A stretch of 64,000 nt of DNA from Lusitaniella coriacea LEGE 07157 (GTDB lineage: Bacteria > Cyanobacteriota > Cyanobacteriia > Cyanobacteriales > Spirulinaceae): NCBI RefSeq assembly GCF_015207425.1, contig NZ_JADEWZ010000021.1, positions 1-64,000 of the forward strand, written 5' to 3'. Below the pieces are notes generated by a model. It worked only from the letters and a program-made list of their open reading frames with translations. It made no database searches and was not told the DNA's origin. The position numbers and the translations under genes are program-made. Every line of letters starts with the position of its first letter. The first letter of the stretch is position 1. Shown piece after piece: positions 54,817 through 60,886 of the stretch.

Positions 54817-56250
54817 CTAATTTGGGTTCAATTCAGCACAATTTTGATGTTGTGCGGCGATTTTCTTTTGCAGGCGAGTGGGAACCCCTAAAACGGCGTT
54901 TTTGTACAAACGCTCGAATTCTCGTTCAAAGTGAGCGGCAACCACTGGATTTTCAATAACGAGCAGCGTTTCGTCGTTGGTATGATTGGCAGCAGCAGAC
55001 CAGTTATGGGAACCGGTGATGACGATTCGTTCGTCCACTACACCAAATTTGTGGTGTAATTTATCGCCGGGAGGGAGTTGGGGAACTCCAACAGTGGAAA
55101 TTGGGGAAGACCAAGGCTGATTATTAGCTTCGTATTTACAACCTTTGCTCAAGGCTACGCCGAGCATATCCAGCGCTTCGCTGTAGTTTGGGTAAGCAAA
55201 ACTGGGGTCGATTAATGCACTGATACTCGCGCCTTGTTGGTGTTTGGTTTCGAGGATGTTGGCGAGGGGTTGTTCGGAGAAGACAAAGAGTGCGAGACGC
55301 ACAGATTGAGTGGCGCGGTTTAAGGTTTTACCGATTAATCCGTTGCTGCTGAGATTCCAGGCGCGGGTGGGGGAGATGGGGGAGAATTGAAGGGTTACAA
55401 CGGATTCTCCAATTTTTAGCTGTTTTGCGGGACGAAATGGCTTTTTGAGTCCAAATTTACTGTTGGGTTTGCCGCCGGGACCATCTCCCCAAAGGATGTT
55501 GAATTCTTCGGTGAAGTGTTGGGTTAAGGGTGCATTTTTAATAACGAGGAGGTGGTTGGCGTTTCCTCGGCTGCTGGTGGGACGAAAATCCCCGTGAATG
55601 CCACTGGTGGTGAAGTTTGCAGAACCTGTCACGACTGTCGCGCGATCGATCGCAACAAATTTATGATGCATTAATCCGGAGCCTTTGCTCCCATCTGCCG
55701 TGTCGTCCAGAATGGGAATACCTGCATCGCGCAAGATCGCTAGTGCATCTCCGTTTTTAATTTCTTCGGCGGTGAGGGAGCCGTTTTTATCGCGATCGAC
55801 CAGTGCAACAAATTCATCGTACCGATCGCGCGCTCTCGGTTGCAACTGACTCACTTCCCCCGGATACAATTCACTCCAAGGACGATTGTAGGTATTTTCT
55901 AAAATAACCCGAACTTTGACTCCCACTTTGTGACGGTCTGCGAGTGCCTGCGCAATTTTGGGTAAGCGCAATTCTTGAACGGCAACATCAACGCTGGATT
56001 TAGCAGTTTTAATGGCATCGACAACAACTTGCTCTAAGTCGTCTCCTGGACGTTCTAACGGACGGTACGGTTCGGTATAATCAGCTCCCTTTGCTTGATT
56101 TTGGTTCGCGTAAACTTGAATAAACGGGTCTTGGGGAAGAGGATCGGGACGTTGAGATTGTGACTGACGAAGCCAAAAGTACCGTCCAATCCCGGCAGTC
56201 ATTATTAAACCAAAAATTACAAATAAGAGCGTAAATCGATGCTGCTTCAT
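54817..56250 (-). CDS. Phospholipase D-superfamily protein with EF-hand loop
   Basis: This 477-residue protein has an N-terminal membrane anchor (residues 6-27), then two HKD modules. HKD1 is His195-x-Lys197-x4-Asp202 (MHHKFVAIDRATVVTGSANF); HKD2 is HHKFGVVDERIVITGSHNWS near residue 425. Inside the first module a canonical 12-residue EF-hand loop (Asp152, Asp154, Asn156, Gly157, Ser158, Thr160, Glu163; DRDKNGSLTAEE) suggests Ca2+ control. PLD-family enzymes cleave phosphodiesters of lipids or DNA. The anchor puts the catalytic part in the periplasm. Both active sites are complete. Confidence 0.88.
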   Translation of the reverse strand: MKQHRFTLLFVIFGLIMTAGIGRYFWLRQSQSQRPDPLPQDPFIQVYANQNQAKGADYTEPYRPLERPGDDLEQVVVDAIKTAKSSVDVAVQELRLPKIAQALADRHKVGVKVRVILENTYNRPWSELYPGEVSQLQPRARDRYDEFVALVDRDKNGSLTAEEIKNGDALAILRDAGIPILDDTADGSKGSGLMHHKFVAIDRATVVTGSANFTTSGIHGDFRPTSSRGNANHLLVIKNAPLTQHFTEEFNILWGDGPGGKPNSKFGLKKPFRPAKQLKIGESVVTLQFSPISPTRAWNLSSNGLIGKTLNRATQSVRLALFVFSEQPLANILETKHQQGASISALIDPSFAYPNYSEALDMLGVALSKGCKYEANNQPWSSPISTVGVPQLPPGDKLHHKFGVVDERIVITGSHNWSAAANHTNDETLLVIENPVVAAHFEREFERLYKNAVLGVPTRLQKKIAAQHQNCAELNPN

Positions 56251-56530: not shown

Positions 56531-56728
56531 TTATTTGTCCTTTGAGTCGCTGACTTTAGGAACGATATCGGGACGATCTTTTCCTTCCCAACCGGGGGGA
56601 CGTTTGGAGTTGTACCACGCGATCGAACCAATTCCAACCGCCGCAATAAACCCTACGACGTACACGGCAACAAACGCAACGGGAAAGTTTCCGCCACTCG
56701 CGGCGGTTGCTTCCATCAATATCTGCAT
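56531..56728 (-). CDS. Psb35-like photosystem II assembly small protein
   Basis: This 65-residue single-span protein has GGNFPVAFVAVYVVGFIAAV, GIGSIAWYNSKRPPGWEGKD and RPDIVPKV. The WYNSKRP-GWE block after the helix is what I associate with Psb35, a thylakoid protein tied to high-light-inducible proteins and PSII assembly. AAGGAG lies nine bases before the ATG. No other photosystem gene is adjacent. The name rests on recall of a short family and is moderately sure. Confidence 0.6.
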   Translation of the reverse strand: MQILMEATAASGGNFPVAFVAVYVVGFIAAVGIGSIAWYNSKRPPGWEGKDRPDIVPKVSDSKDK

Positions 56729-57456: not shown

Positions 57457-59535
57457 TTAAGTGGCAGCCTCCAGGAAAGCTTGGTAGGCTGTTTCTACGG
57501 TTTCAACGGCTGTATTGACTTCCCCTTCAAAGTTTCTCAACCGTTCGACTTCCGTCGCGCGATCGATTTCGTAGGATTCTTTCTGCTTCACTAAATTATC
57601 TAACTCTGTCTTGCGTGCCGTAATATCTTCATTAATGCGGTTAGTGACTTCTTGTTCGTAGGTTTTGAAGCATTCCGCGATCGCGTCATGAACGGGTTGC
57701 CATTGTTCCTCTGCAACTTGGGGGAGGTATTTCACTAATTCCTTTTTCGCCGCCTTGACCAATTCCTTACGCGCCTGGTCTGCTTGTACCATCCCTACGC
57801 CTAACCCTAAAACGGCAAATCCGAGGGGTCCTAAAACAACTCCCGTCGCTGTGGTGATAATGCTGCCGATGCCGAAGACGGTAATAAAATTGAGAATAAT
57901 ATTCTTCCAATCAAACCCCGCACCTGCCATCGCCACCCCTGCAATATTCCCCCTGGCGAGAGAAAAGATTCCGGCTGCCCATTTTGCCCAAGCGGGGGCA
58001 TTATCCTCTTGGGTGTAGCCTGATATGGAAGGGATTTTGTGTCCGGTGAGTTTTTCCGCGATCGCGTCGGTCACTTTGGTGTAGGATGCCCCGTAGCGAG
58101 TCGCACTTTTGGAGAGTTGTGCAAATGCCGCATCCATCTCCTTCTCAGCCGTCAGACTCCACGCGGCGAGTTTGTCGTTGATATACTGTTCAAAGGCTTT
58201 ACGCAGTTGCGCTTCAAAAGCATCTCGTTTTTTGGAAGAGAAGAAATCGAAAAAATTCAATGCCGGTTGGTAGCGAATAAAATCCGCTTCAAAGGTATTG
58301 CCAAGATTCAAAATATAATCGCGGAAGGAATCGGCAATAATTTTAGCTTTTGTGTCTCGAAGTTCCTGAATTTCGCCCTTAAATTGTCTTTGTATCTCGT
58401 GCAGTTGGTTGAATTCCGGTTCGACGGAACGAATTCTTTCTTTTAATTGGTTAACATCATCTTCGAGTAACGGGATGCGACGTTCTACGCTTTCGCGAAT
58501 GCGACTGTTGGTTTGTCTAGCGAGGGTTCTTGCTTGTCGAAGTTCCGCGATCGCGCGTTCTTGAGTTAAAAAGGTATTTAATGCCGCCATAAACTCCGGA
58601 AACCCCGTTCCTTCAAGAGACGCATTGGCATCCTTAATTCGCCGTCGCAATGCCAACAAAGAAGAGAGTTCAAAAACACGCTCTTCGTACCAATCGTAAC
58701 CGTCAATCTGGCAATATTCCGCTAAATTTGCCTTGAAAACGCGCTGCAATTTCCACTCCGCTTCCTCCAATTCTTCCGGGTCATCAGGATCGATTAAACT
58801 CTCTTTAACTTGATCCCAAGCATTGATTAAAAAGAAGACCGTTAAACCCCGATCTTTAATATAATTTTCTAAGTAACGTCGCTCTCCTAACGTACAAGGC
58901 TGTGTGGCTCGCAGCACAAATAAAACTGCGTGACAATTGTTGATATATCCCAAAGATAATTCATTCCTCGCCTCCGTATCATTCAATCCCGGACTATCGA
59001 CAATTTCAATGCCTTTTTCTAATAAAGGTAGGGGATATTCTACCACTGCATAATCGACATTGGGAAACGCCTCTTTTTTCTGTTCTTCCAATCGCTTCGC
59101 TTCTGCCGAATCGATCGTATAGTTGCGTTTAAAACTCTTGAAATCAATAGTTTCTGAAGGCGTATTGTCATTGAAATGTACCGTCACCTTCTTCTCAGAA
59201 CCGTAACGCAGAACTGTCAGAATCGCCGTACAAGGATTGACATCGCTGGGTAGCAAATTTTCGCCAATTAAGGCATTGAGAAACGTACTTTTCCCTCGCT
59301 TCATATCTCCCAACACTAACAAGCGAAAAACTCCTTGCTGCAAGCTTTGCGCGACACGGCTCAAATCTTCCACATCACGATCCAACTCCAGAGAACCGGA
59401 CTGCTTTTTACCTTCCAATTCGGCTTGCTGTAAGGTTTGAACGAGATGGCTTAGAGTGTCGGCAATATTGGCACGAGTTTTTGCCACGCGATCGAGATCG
59501 TTTAAGAAATTAGTGGTTTCAATTTTTTGATTCAT
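57457..59535 (-). CDS. Dynamin-like GTPase 2 with membrane paddle (BDLP type)
   Basis: From the ATG at 59535 the protein has 692 residues. The GTPase domain shows VLGDMKRGKSTFLNALIG, PCTAILTVLRYG, IVDSPGLNDTEARNE and LINAWDQ as G1-G4. A long helical stalk (about 330-520) follows. Then two hydrophobic segments (LARGNIAGVAMAGAGF and ILNFITVFGIGSIITTATGV, continuing VLGPLGFAVLGLGVGM) form a paddle, and the C-terminal helices return to the stalk. This is the layout of cyanobacterial BDLP, which tubulates membranes. The longer frame (from 59589) overlaps the LRR gene and is rejected. It starts 13 bases after the LRR stop. Confidence 0.9.
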   Translation of the reverse strand: MNQKIETTNFLNDLDRVAKTRANIADTLSHLVQTLQQAELEGKKQSGSLELDRDVEDLSRVAQSLQQGVFRLLVLGDMKRGKSTFLNALIGENLLPSDVNPCTAILTVLRYGSEKKVTVHFNDNTPSETIDFKSFKRNYTIDSAEAKRLEEQKKEAFPNVDYAVVEYPLPLLEKGIEIVDSPGLNDTEARNELSLGYINNCHAVLFVLRATQPCTLGERRYLENYIKDRGLTVFFLINAWDQVKESLIDPDDPEELEEAEWKLQRVFKANLAEYCQIDGYDWYEERVFELSSLLALRRRIKDANASLEGTGFPEFMAALNTFLTQERAIAELRQARTLARQTNSRIRESVERRIPLLEDDVNQLKERIRSVEPEFNQLHEIQRQFKGEIQELRDTKAKIIADSFRDYILNLGNTFEADFIRYQPALNFFDFFSSKKRDAFEAQLRKAFEQYINDKLAAWSLTAEKEMDAAFAQLSKSATRYGASYTKVTDAIAEKLTGHKIPSISGYTQEDNAPAWAKWAAGIFSLARGNIAGVAMAGAGFDWKNIILNFITVFGIGSIITTATGVVLGPLGFAVLGLGVGMVQADQARKELVKAAKKELVKYLPQVAEEQWQPVHDAIAECFKTYEQEVTNRINEDITARKTELDNLVKQKESYEIDRATEVERLRNFEGEVNTAVETVETAYQAFLEAAT

Positions 59536-59548
59536 TTTTGCAAGAATT

Positions 59549-60886
59549 TTAGAAAGGATAATAAGTTCTATGAGGCGGTTTGAAATCACAGAATAAAACA
59601 GGACACTCTTCTGTAACTAAAGGATTACTGTACGCATAGATTACACGAAGTTTTTCTAGTGAAGATAATGAACTGAGATCGGTGATTTGATTATTGCTAA
59701 CATTCAAATAAGTGAGATTAGTTAAATTAGCAAGTGGACTCACATCAATAATGATATTGATCGGCAGAGATAGATGAGTTAAATTGGTAAGGTTGGATAG
59801 CGGACGAAGATCGACGATCTTATTATTCACCAGAACCAATTTAGTGAGTCGAGTTAAATTGCTTAACGGCTCGATATCGGATATCAAATTATTATTAATA
59901 GAGAGTTCAGTGAGTTCGACCAAATTCCTGAGCGAACCAATATCACGAATATTATTACGTTCGAGGATTAGTTTGGTTAACTTGTTCAGAGTTGCCAAAG
60001 GACTGATATCAAAAATTCCAGTTCCCATAAGACGGAGTTGTGTTAGGTTTACGAGGTGAGACATGGGAGTCAGATCGATGCGTCGATCTCGCCTCAAGGT
60101 AAACTGAGTTAAATTTGTTAGACGAGACAGTGGAGTAAGAGTTTCTATTTGATCTCCAGAGAGAGAAAGCTGAGTTAGATTTTCGAGATGAGCGAGTGGA
60201 CTGATATCTTTGATTTTTTCTCCACCGAGATGCAGTTGAGTTAAGTTTGTTAAACCCGTAAGCGAACTCACGTTATTAATATTTTCTCCCCCAATTTCTA
60301 ATTCAGTTAAATTGGTTAGGCGAGCGAGTGGGTTTAGATCGTTAATATTCTTTCCACCAAGGTGCAGTTGAGTTAAATTCGTTAAGTTAGAAAGCGGACT
60401 CAGATTGCTGAAATCTCCTCCACTTAGATGAAGTACAGTGAGGTTAGTTAGGCGAGTGAGCGGACTCAGATCGGCAATATTATTATTGGTGAGGCTCAGT
60501 CCAACAAGATTAGTTAGAGTTGCTAGCGGACTAATATCGGTAACATTGTTAAATTCTAAATTGAGTCCCGTAAGATTTGTGAGAGTTGCGAGCGGACGAA
60601 CATCTCTAATATTCCTCCAACTGATATCGATTACAGTGCGGCTAGATAAAGAATCAGAAGCATTTTTACAGTCAACTTCCAAAGCTCCACCCAACAGCAC
60701 ATCTACCGTATGTTTTGCTTCTGGAGAAAGGTTTTCTCTATTCTCGCACCATTGAACAAAACTGTTATAAGTTTGGGGTGTTTGTGCGATTGAAGGAATA
60801 TGAAAACTTAAGATGAGAGAGAGTCCCAAGCAAAAAGCGATCGCTTGAGAGATAAATTTGGAAGGTCGTATCTTTGAAATAGCCAC
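59549..60886 (-). CDS. Secreted leucine-rich-repeat protein, internalin type
   Basis: This 445-residue protein has a signal peptide (residues 1-35, FCLGLSLILSFHIPSIAQ), a short cap with two Cys (FVQWCENRENLS; LEVDCKNAS), then about fifteen 22-residue LRRs with consensus LTNLTxLxLxxNxIxDISPLA (about 95-425). It ends with a Cys-containing cap (EECPVLFCDFKPP). This is the bacterial LRR_4/internalin class, a protein-binding solenoid. It is presumably periplasmic, surface or extracellular. The dynamin-like GTPase 2 follows after 13 bases on the same strand, an unexpected partner. Confidence 0.88.
   Translation of the reverse strand: MAISKIRPSKFISQAIAFCLGLSLILSFHIPSIAQTPQTYNSFVQWCENRENLSPEAKHTVDVLLGGALEVDCKNASDSLSSRTVIDISWRNIRDVRPLATLTNLTGLNLEFNNVTDISPLATLTNLVGLSLTNNNIADLSPLTRLTNLTVLHLSGGDFSNLSPLSNLTNLTQLHLGGKNINDLNPLARLTNLTELEIGGENINNVSSLTGLTNLTQLHLGGEKIKDISPLAHLENLTQLSLSGDQIETLTPLSRLTNLTQFTLRRDRRIDLTPMSHLVNLTQLRLMGTGIFDISPLATLNKLTKLILERNNIRDIGSLRNLVELTELSINNNLISDIEPLSNLTRLTKLVLVNNKIVDLRPLSNLTNLTHLSLPINIIIDVSPLANLTNLTYLNVSNNQITDLSSLSSLEKLRVIYAYSNPLVTEECPVLFCDFKPPHRTYYPF

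What the first reader, a model, noticed from the sequence alone, without database searches (positions are those of the whole stretch)
55760..55800. EF-hand loop embedded in the first HKD half of a PLD-family protein
Residues 152-163 (DRDKNGSLTAEE) fulfil all six EF-hand ligand positions, and lie about 30 residues before the HKD1 histidine. With an N-terminal membrane anchor this predicts a periplasmic phosphodiesterase gated or stabilised by Ca2+. I recall similar inserts in a few cyanobacterial homologues but no functional study.
Basis: partly seen in the sequence, partly recalled or inferred. Interest (0 to 1): 0.5.

Follow-up and report, generated by a model that had tools for sequence, protein, structure and literature searches.

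The report
Calcium-loop nuclease in cyanobacterial DNA uptake
The flagged calcium-binding loop is real and kept almost unchanged across cyanobacteria, and it sits in what is probably an enzyme these bacteria use to process DNA they take up from their surroundings, a step their usual DNA-import protein appears no longer able to do.

Summary
The window gene (54817-56250, minus strand, 477 aa) encodes a membrane-anchored double-HKD (phospholipase D-type) protein with a canonical 12-residue EF-hand loop at residues 152-163, modelled (pLDDT 95.8) as helix-loop-helix inserted in the first PLD half. Of 169 distinct homologues, 145 carry the loop with Asp1 and Glu12 invariant; 24 have lost it by deletion; none is half-decayed. 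It is a selected metal site and not confined to 'a few' homologues.

The protein is the larger finding. In 74 of 169 homologues the same chain ends in a ComEA-type helix-hairpin-helix tail. Presence tracks ComEC in one family of small-genome cyanobacteria (107 both, 38 neither, 6 discordant of 151), less well in the window's order. The literature's Synechocystis ComA/ComEA (slr0197), required for transformation, fits this architecture; its sequence could not be compared. In 34 of 34 ComEC loci of the window's class the motif of ComEC's own nuclease is gone; 15 of 18 loci from other classes keep it.

Best reading: a ComEA-linked PLD nuclease standing in for the dead ComEC nuclease, with a Ca2+ site that stabilises or tunes it. 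DNase activity, the identity with slr0197 and any Ca2+ effect are inferred. The window copy lacks the tail.

The parts
54817..56250 (-). Membrane-anchored double-HKD PLD-family protein, 477 aa; proposed cyanobacterial ComA/ComEA-type nuclease without the HhH tail
   Evidence: ORF; PLDc_2 5.5e-45; NucT-like below cut-off; model; homologues
56173..56235 (-). N-terminal hydrophobic helix (about residues 6-26), membrane anchor; 126 of 169 homologues show a lipobox-like Cys pattern in this region, the window copy does not
55798..55839 (-). Entering helix of the EF-hand (residues 138-151)
   Evidence: DSSP of the predicted model
55762..55797 (-). EF-hand loop DRDKNGSLTAEE (residues 152-163)
   Evidence: D1 and E12 in 145 of 145 loop-bearing homologues
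55750..55770 (-). Exiting helix of the EF-hand (residues 161-167)
   Evidence: DSSP of the predicted model
55645..55668 (-). HKD1 (H195, K197, D202)
   Evidence: 169 of 169
55033..55056 (-). HKD2 (H399, K401, D406)
   Evidence: H and K in 169 of 169, D in 168 of 169

Best explanation
The gene belongs to what is most likely the cyanobacterial ComA/ComEA family: membrane-anchored periplasmic double-HKD phosphodiesterases that act on incoming DNA during natural transformation. The enzyme most likely degrades or nicks the strand that is not imported, because the beta-lactamase-like nuclease domain of ComEC has lost its catalytic motif in this class. In many lineages the same chain carries a ComEA-type tandem helix-hairpin-helix tail that would hold the DNA; the window copy has no tail. 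The single EF-hand, inserted between strands 112-117 and 180-182 of the first PLD half, most likely binds one Ca2+ in the periplasm and stiffens that insert, so that the enzyme is Ca2+-stabilised or Ca2+-tuned. Shown here by computation: EF loop and its all-or-none conservation, fold, intact HKDs, HhH tail in relatives, association with ComEC in one family, loss of the ComEC motif. Inferred: identity with slr0197, DNase activity, which strand is cut, Ca2+ binding and its effect.
For: EF loop: 145 of 169 intact, 24 deleted, 0 degenerate; 17 of the 24 deletions lose exactly 14 residues; 5 state changes on a FastTree tree, 4 independent pairs on supported branches. HKD residues kept. HHH_3 in 38 of 89 members at E<=0.1; C-terminal tail of 50 or more residues in 75 of 169, 74 of them HhH by pattern (70) or by eye (4). 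ComEA model TIGR00426 over its cut-off in 34 of 195 genomes of the order; by my comparison of coordinates, 32 of the 34 lie directly 3' of the PLD match, one (G010) is a separate protein, one (G155) could not be checked. ComEC in 151 genomes of family f41: both 107, PLD only 4, ComEC only 2, neither 38 (recounted in 117; fragments counted as present; Fisher p 1e-28, not corrected for kinship). ComEC HxDxDH-type motif absent in 34 of 34 loci of the window's class, present in 15 of 18 loci of other classes; Lactamase_B in 0 of 10 against 9 of 10 scanned. [quoted passage not shown] a comEA knockout abolished transfer (PMC10667661); [quoted passage not shown] Near folds include PLD3/PLD4 at Z 30.3-31.6.
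Against: Of 15 genomes of the order without a match to the PLD gene, 8 still have ComEC; two of these 8 were examined (G147, G149) and their ComEC lacks the nuclease motif too, so there neither nuclease is seen. The nearest folds include lipid enzymes (7e0m, titled phospholipase D, at the top; vaccinia F13 and phosphatidylserine synthases 1 to 4 Z lower), so fold does not settle the substrate. 94 of 169 homologues, the window's included, lack the tail. The loop is missing in at least three lineages that keep both HKDs, so Ca2+ cannot be essential to the core reaction there. HKD catalysis needs no metal (established knowledge); added Mg2+ or Mn2+ did not change PLD3 activity (PMC10783504 passage). 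EF-hands usually work in pairs; this one is single.
Confidence: 0.6

Rival explanations
1. A periplasmic competence nuclease in which the EF-hand is only a structural Ca2+ staple, always filled at periplasmic Ca2+, without regulatory role. (A sub-case of the best explanation, set against tuning.)
For: Single EF-hand, all-or-none loss, insert modelled with pLDDT above 90, no second EF-hand in any homologue.
Against: Lineages that lost the loop keep the enzyme and would need other stability; nothing excludes tuning.
Confidence: 0.5
2. A periplasmic phospholipase D or phosphatidyl transferase acting on membrane lipids, with Ca2+ aiding lipid binding.
For: 7e0m (titled phospholipase D) is the top fold match, F13 and phosphatidylserine synthases are close; membrane anchor.
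Against: HhH tail in 74 of 169 homologues; association with ComEC; sequence-level relatives are NucT, DrmC, MitoPLD-type and Nuc.
Confidence: 0.15
3. A DNA-scavenging or defensive surface nuclease unrelated to transformation, whose loss together with ComEC in small genomes merely reflects streamlining.
For: Most genomes lacking both in f41 are small (1.6-2.0 Mb among those listed); 8 of 15 PLD-less genomes of the order still have ComEC.
Against: In f41 genomes of 1.9-2.4 Mb partial decay of one gene goes with absence or decay of the other (G402, G435, G500, G539); ComEA-type tail; reported transformation defect of comEA mutants, if slr0197 is this protein.
Confidence: 0.18
4. The loop is a chance EF-like stretch without metal.
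For: Pfam EF-hand scores are below cut-off in the window copy.
Against: D1 and E12 in 145 of 145 while most neighbouring positions vary; helix-loop-helix in the model; 65 of 200,000 shuffles.
Confidence: 0.03

Closest known systems
Synechocystis ComA/ComEA (slr0197)
   [quoted passage not shown]); the tailed members here fit that
   Different: Its sequence was not compared; the window copy lacks the DNA-binding tail; no passage that I read mentions an EF-hand
Human/mouse PLD3 and PLD4
   Same: Double-HKD, N-terminal membrane anchor (PLD3), lumenal active site; Z 30.3-31.6, 3.0-3.4 A over 319-333 residues
   Different: 17-19% identity; no EF-hand insert that I know of; lipid enzymes score nearly as high
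NucT of Helicobacter pylori, Nuc (1byr), MitoPLD-type hydrolases
   Same: Sequence-level relatives of the PLD halves
   Different: One HKD per chain, dimeric (recalled); no EF-hand, no HhH tail (recalled)
EndA of Streptococcus pneumoniae
   Same: Works-like comparison only: a separate membrane nuclease where ComEC's nuclease domain is likely inactive (PMC12455585 passage)
   Different: Unrelated fold (recalled); not fused to a ComEA domain (recalled)
ComEA-type HhH proteins and fusions
   Same: Tandem HhH tail; a tree legend in PMC4777378 already lists PLDc_SF among domains fused to such HhH domains (section 25 read)
   Different: B. subtilis ComEA has an SLBB and an HhH domain and no catalytic domain

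Membership tests
PLD superfamily (double HKD) | Two HxK(x)4D motifs | tested here: met
   H195/K197/D202 in 169 of 169; H399/K401 in 169 of 169, D406 in 168 of 169; PLDc_2 in 89 of 89
PLD superfamily (double HKD) | PLD fold | tested here: met
   predicted model: Z 32.4 to 7e0m, 30.3-31.6 to PLD3/PLD4
EF-hand | 12-residue loop with ligands at 1, 3, 5, 7, 9, 12, Gly6 and hydrophobic 8 | tested here: met
   window copy; family
EF-hand | Helix-loop-helix | tested here: met
   predicted model only
EF-hand | Pfam profile score over the curated cut-off | tested here: not met
   window copy 13.5 bits against 25.4
EF-hand | Ca2+ binding | not testable with these tools
   needs biochemistry
ComEA (cyanobacterial ComA/ComEA type) | ComEA-type tandem HhH domain in the same protein | tested here: not met
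   absent from the window copy; present in 74 of 169 homologues
ComEA (cyanobacterial ComA/ComEA type) | Orthology to slr0197 | not tested
ComEA (cyanobacterial ComA/ComEA type) | Co-occurrence with ComEC | tested here: inconclusive
   145 of 151 genomes of f41 agree; but 8 of 15 PLD-less genomes of the order keep ComEC
Competence nuclease | DNase activity needed for transformation | not testable with these tools
   needs mutants and assays

The most novel reading that the evidence does not exclude
Photosynthetic cyanobacteria replaced the nuclease of ComEC by a PLD-family 5' exonuclease fused to the DNA receptor ComEA, and this enzyme is gated by periplasmic Ca2+ through one EF-hand, so that DNA processing during uptake responds to calcium; lineages that cut the loop out precisely escaped that control.
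Probability: 0.22. Interest if true: 0.8.

Novelty: new variant of a known kind. Interest (0 to 1): 0.6.

Why it matters
How cyanobacteria turn incoming DNA into a single strand is called poorly or not fully understood in the reviews seen here (passages). The data point to one widely conserved gene and to a matching loss in ComEC, and supply point-mutation tests (HKD histidines; D152/E163) in organisms that are routinely transformed. If Ca2+ matters, it gives a molecular handle on calcium and DNA uptake.

Tried and rejected
Rejected: chance EF motif. Rejected: loop confined to a few homologues. Tried: tail against loop loss; all 75 proteins with a long tail have the loop and all 24 loop-less ones lack the tail, but only 4 independent supported pairs exist and the sign test has no power, so no claim. 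Tried: recognising slr0197 by gene neighbours in a genome (G019) that might be a Synechocystis; the neighbours were a TPR protein, a phosphomannomutase-like protein, dnaG and exodeoxyribonuclease III, which neither confirmed nor refuted it. Tried: a stand-alone secreted ComEA in the window genome; its three HHH_3 hits are a 727-aa frame (Tex by size, recalled), a 183-aa protein in which I see no signal sequence, and PsbU. The separate HhH proteins of 273 and 276 aa in G008 and G010 look cytosolic to me (by eye). Promoter and terminator scans around the gene gave promoter hits at the shuffle level (2 against 2.4) and 6 terminator-like sites against 2.7, none placed convincingly at the gene's end. 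The distance from the EF loop to the active site could not be measured: no model coordinates were on hand. Papers: searches for EF-hand with PLD, HKD and cyanobacteria, EF-hand proteins of cyanobacteria, EF-hand with ComEA (10 of 36 listed) and ComEA with phospholipase D (20 of 26 listed) listed no paper on this EF-hand; only titles and abstract starts were seen there. Yura 1999, cited for the endonuclease domain, is not held.

Full report
The feature. The ORF at 54817-56250 on the minus strand (477 aa) holds DRDKNGSLTAEE at residues 152-163, window 55762-55797. Positions 1, 3, 5, 7, 9 and 12 are D, D, N, S, T, E, with Gly at 6 and Leu at 8. Pfam finds two PLDc_2 stretches and only sub-threshold EF-hands; the best NCBIfam relatives, NucT and DrmC, are below their cut-offs; solved relatives by sequence are MitoPLD-type hydrolases, Nuc and NucT.

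Group names. 'Window's class' means genomes marked same family, order or class; I take them to be the photosynthetic cyanobacteria, and those marked 'same phylum' only to be non-photosynthetic relatives. I take family f41 (1.6-4.1 Mb) to be the picocyanobacteria. These identifications are inference from genome size and gene content.

Conservation. The gene has a match in 13 of 13 genomes of its family, 180 of 195 of its order and 255 of 292 of a phylum-wide draw; in that draw the listed matches outside the class are weak and partial (best 1.6e-19). From loci I assembled 169 distinct homologues of at least 380 aa including the window's (6 shorter dropped, distinctness rechecked). In 145 the EF loop is canonical: D1 and E12 in all 145; position 3 N (106) or D (39); position 5 D (127), N (17) or S (1); position 9 S, T, D or N in 142; Gly6 in 108; position 7 variable. 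Most flanking positions vary widely. In the other 24 the loop is absent; 17 of these lack exactly 14 residues. None has a half-decayed loop. The losses lie in family f14 (6 sequences), one sequence of f9 (L127) and f41 (17 sequences); parsimony on a FastTree tree built without the insert and tail needs 5 changes, with 4 independent pairs on supported branches. Side-chain ligands kept together or lost together is what a working metal site predicts.

Structure. AlphaFold2 with 113 homologues gives mean pLDDT 95.8. The EF-hand lies in an insert between strands 112-117 and 180-182 of the first PLD half: helix 138-151, loop 152-160, helix 161-167. Best structural matches are 7e0m (titled phospholipase D, Z 32.4) and PLD3/PLD4 (Z 30.3-31.6), then vaccinia F13 (29.3-29.9) and phosphatidylserine synthases (27.8-29.0). 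PLD3 is a 5' exonuclease made as a type II membrane protein (PMC10783504, abstract and passages; PMC11653685, abstract start and passages), but as lipid enzymes score nearly as high or higher, fold does not fix the substrate. A tailed homologue (L026) gives pLDDT 91.4, with a low-confidence linker at 478-493 and a folded HhH domain at the C-terminus.

Link to competence. A tail of 50 or more residues follows the PLD core in 75 of 169 homologues; 74 are HhH, 70 by pattern and 4 by eye. HHH_3 is found in 38 of 89 scanned. The ComEA model TIGR00426 passes its cut-off in 34 of 195 genomes of the order. Comparing coordinates, 32 of these lie directly behind the PLD match, one is a separate 276-aa protein, one could not be checked. 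It also matches below cut-off in many more genomes (176 of 195 in all), partly in these tails and partly in frames of about 710-780 aa, the size of Tex (recalled). [quoted passage not shown]). I take this family to be that protein; I could not compare the sequence. In 151 genomes of f41 (completeness 95% or more asked for), 107 have both this gene and ComEC, 4 only this gene (G435, G442, G477, G534), 2 only ComEC (G402 partial, G522 weak), 38 neither; fragments count as present. Against this, of 15 genomes of the order without a match to the gene, 7 lack ComEC and 8 have it; 17 genomes with the gene and 2 with a weak or partial match all have ComEC.

The ComEC side. In the ComEC studied in PMC12455585 (passages; [quoted passage not shown] in pneumococcus that domain is likely inactive and EndA does the work. 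I examined ComEC loci of 34 genomes of the window's class (14, 20): the HxDxDH-type motif is absent in 34 of 34, although the residual domain still aligns in those shown (L245 is a partial frame). Of 18 loci from 17 genomes of other classes, 15 keep the motif; of the three without it, L223 looks misframed in my alignment. Pfam Lactamase_B is found in 0 of 10 and 9 of 10 scanned. A 2018 survey already has the DUF4131-Competence profile, without Lactamase_B, as the main one in Cyanobacteria (PMC6299819, passage). I saw no paper that pairs this loss with the PLD protein or notes the EF-hand, within the searches named in Tried and rejected. A result against simple replacement: G147 and G149 have no match to the PLD gene, yet their ComEC lacks the motif as well (L201, L206).

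Mechanism, with steps marked. Membrane anchoring and periplasmic location: from the hydrophobic helix, a lipobox-like Cys pattern in 126 of 169 (a simple pattern) and the literature. Phosphodiesterase chemistry: expected from the kept HKDs. DNA as substrate: inferred from the HhH tail, the ComEC association, nuclease relatives and the literature. Stand-in for ComEC's nuclease: inferred. Ca2+ binding: strongly suggested by the kept ligands; its effect unknown. Structural stabilisation is at least as likely as gating, since HKD chemistry needs no metal and several lineages do without the loop. A Mn or Mg ion about 20 A from the PLD3 active site is on record, with no effect of added metal on activity (PMC10783504 passages).

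The window copy. It has no HhH tail: the gene ends at residue 477, the following bases in frame hold none, and the HHH_3 hits of the genome lie elsewhere. ComEC is present (C28), without the nuclease motif (L194). How DNA is held without the tail is open.

Noticed in passing
L194:993-3236 (window genome, C28): The window genome's ComEC keeps the DUF4131 and Competence domains but lacks the beta-lactamase catalytic motif, as in 34 of 34 loci of its class.
   Followed up: yes
55675-55707: A highly conserved Asp-rich stretch, DDTADGSKGSG (residues 182-192, D182 invariant in the 113-row alignment), directly before HKD1; perhaps a second functional loop.
   Followed up: no
56531-56728: Small 65-aa ORF on the minus strand with one hydrophobic stretch, no Pfam hit at 1e-3; resembles a small photosystem-associated protein (Psb35-like) from memory only.
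   Followed up: partly
57457-59589: Bacterial dynamin-like protein (Dynamin_N and helical domain); another GTPase at 47882-50107 matches dynamin-like and Era-type models weakly.
   Followed up: partly
59549-60886: Leucine-rich-repeat protein of 445 aa upstream of the dynamin-like gene on the same strand, the two ORFs as listed overlapping by 41 bases.
   Followed up: no
L127 (G161): A homologue without the EF loop; its genome has a second, full-length match elsewhere, whose loop was not checked.
   Followed up: no
G471, G435, G538, G346: Several f41 genomes hold extra short copies of the C-terminal HKD2 part, like partial duplications or pseudogenes.
   Followed up: no
L133:1315-1746: The HhH tail also matches PsbU (27 of 89 members at E<=0.1) and PsbU itself gives a weak HHH_3 match, suggesting kinship of this photosystem II protein with ComEA-type domains.
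   Followed up: no
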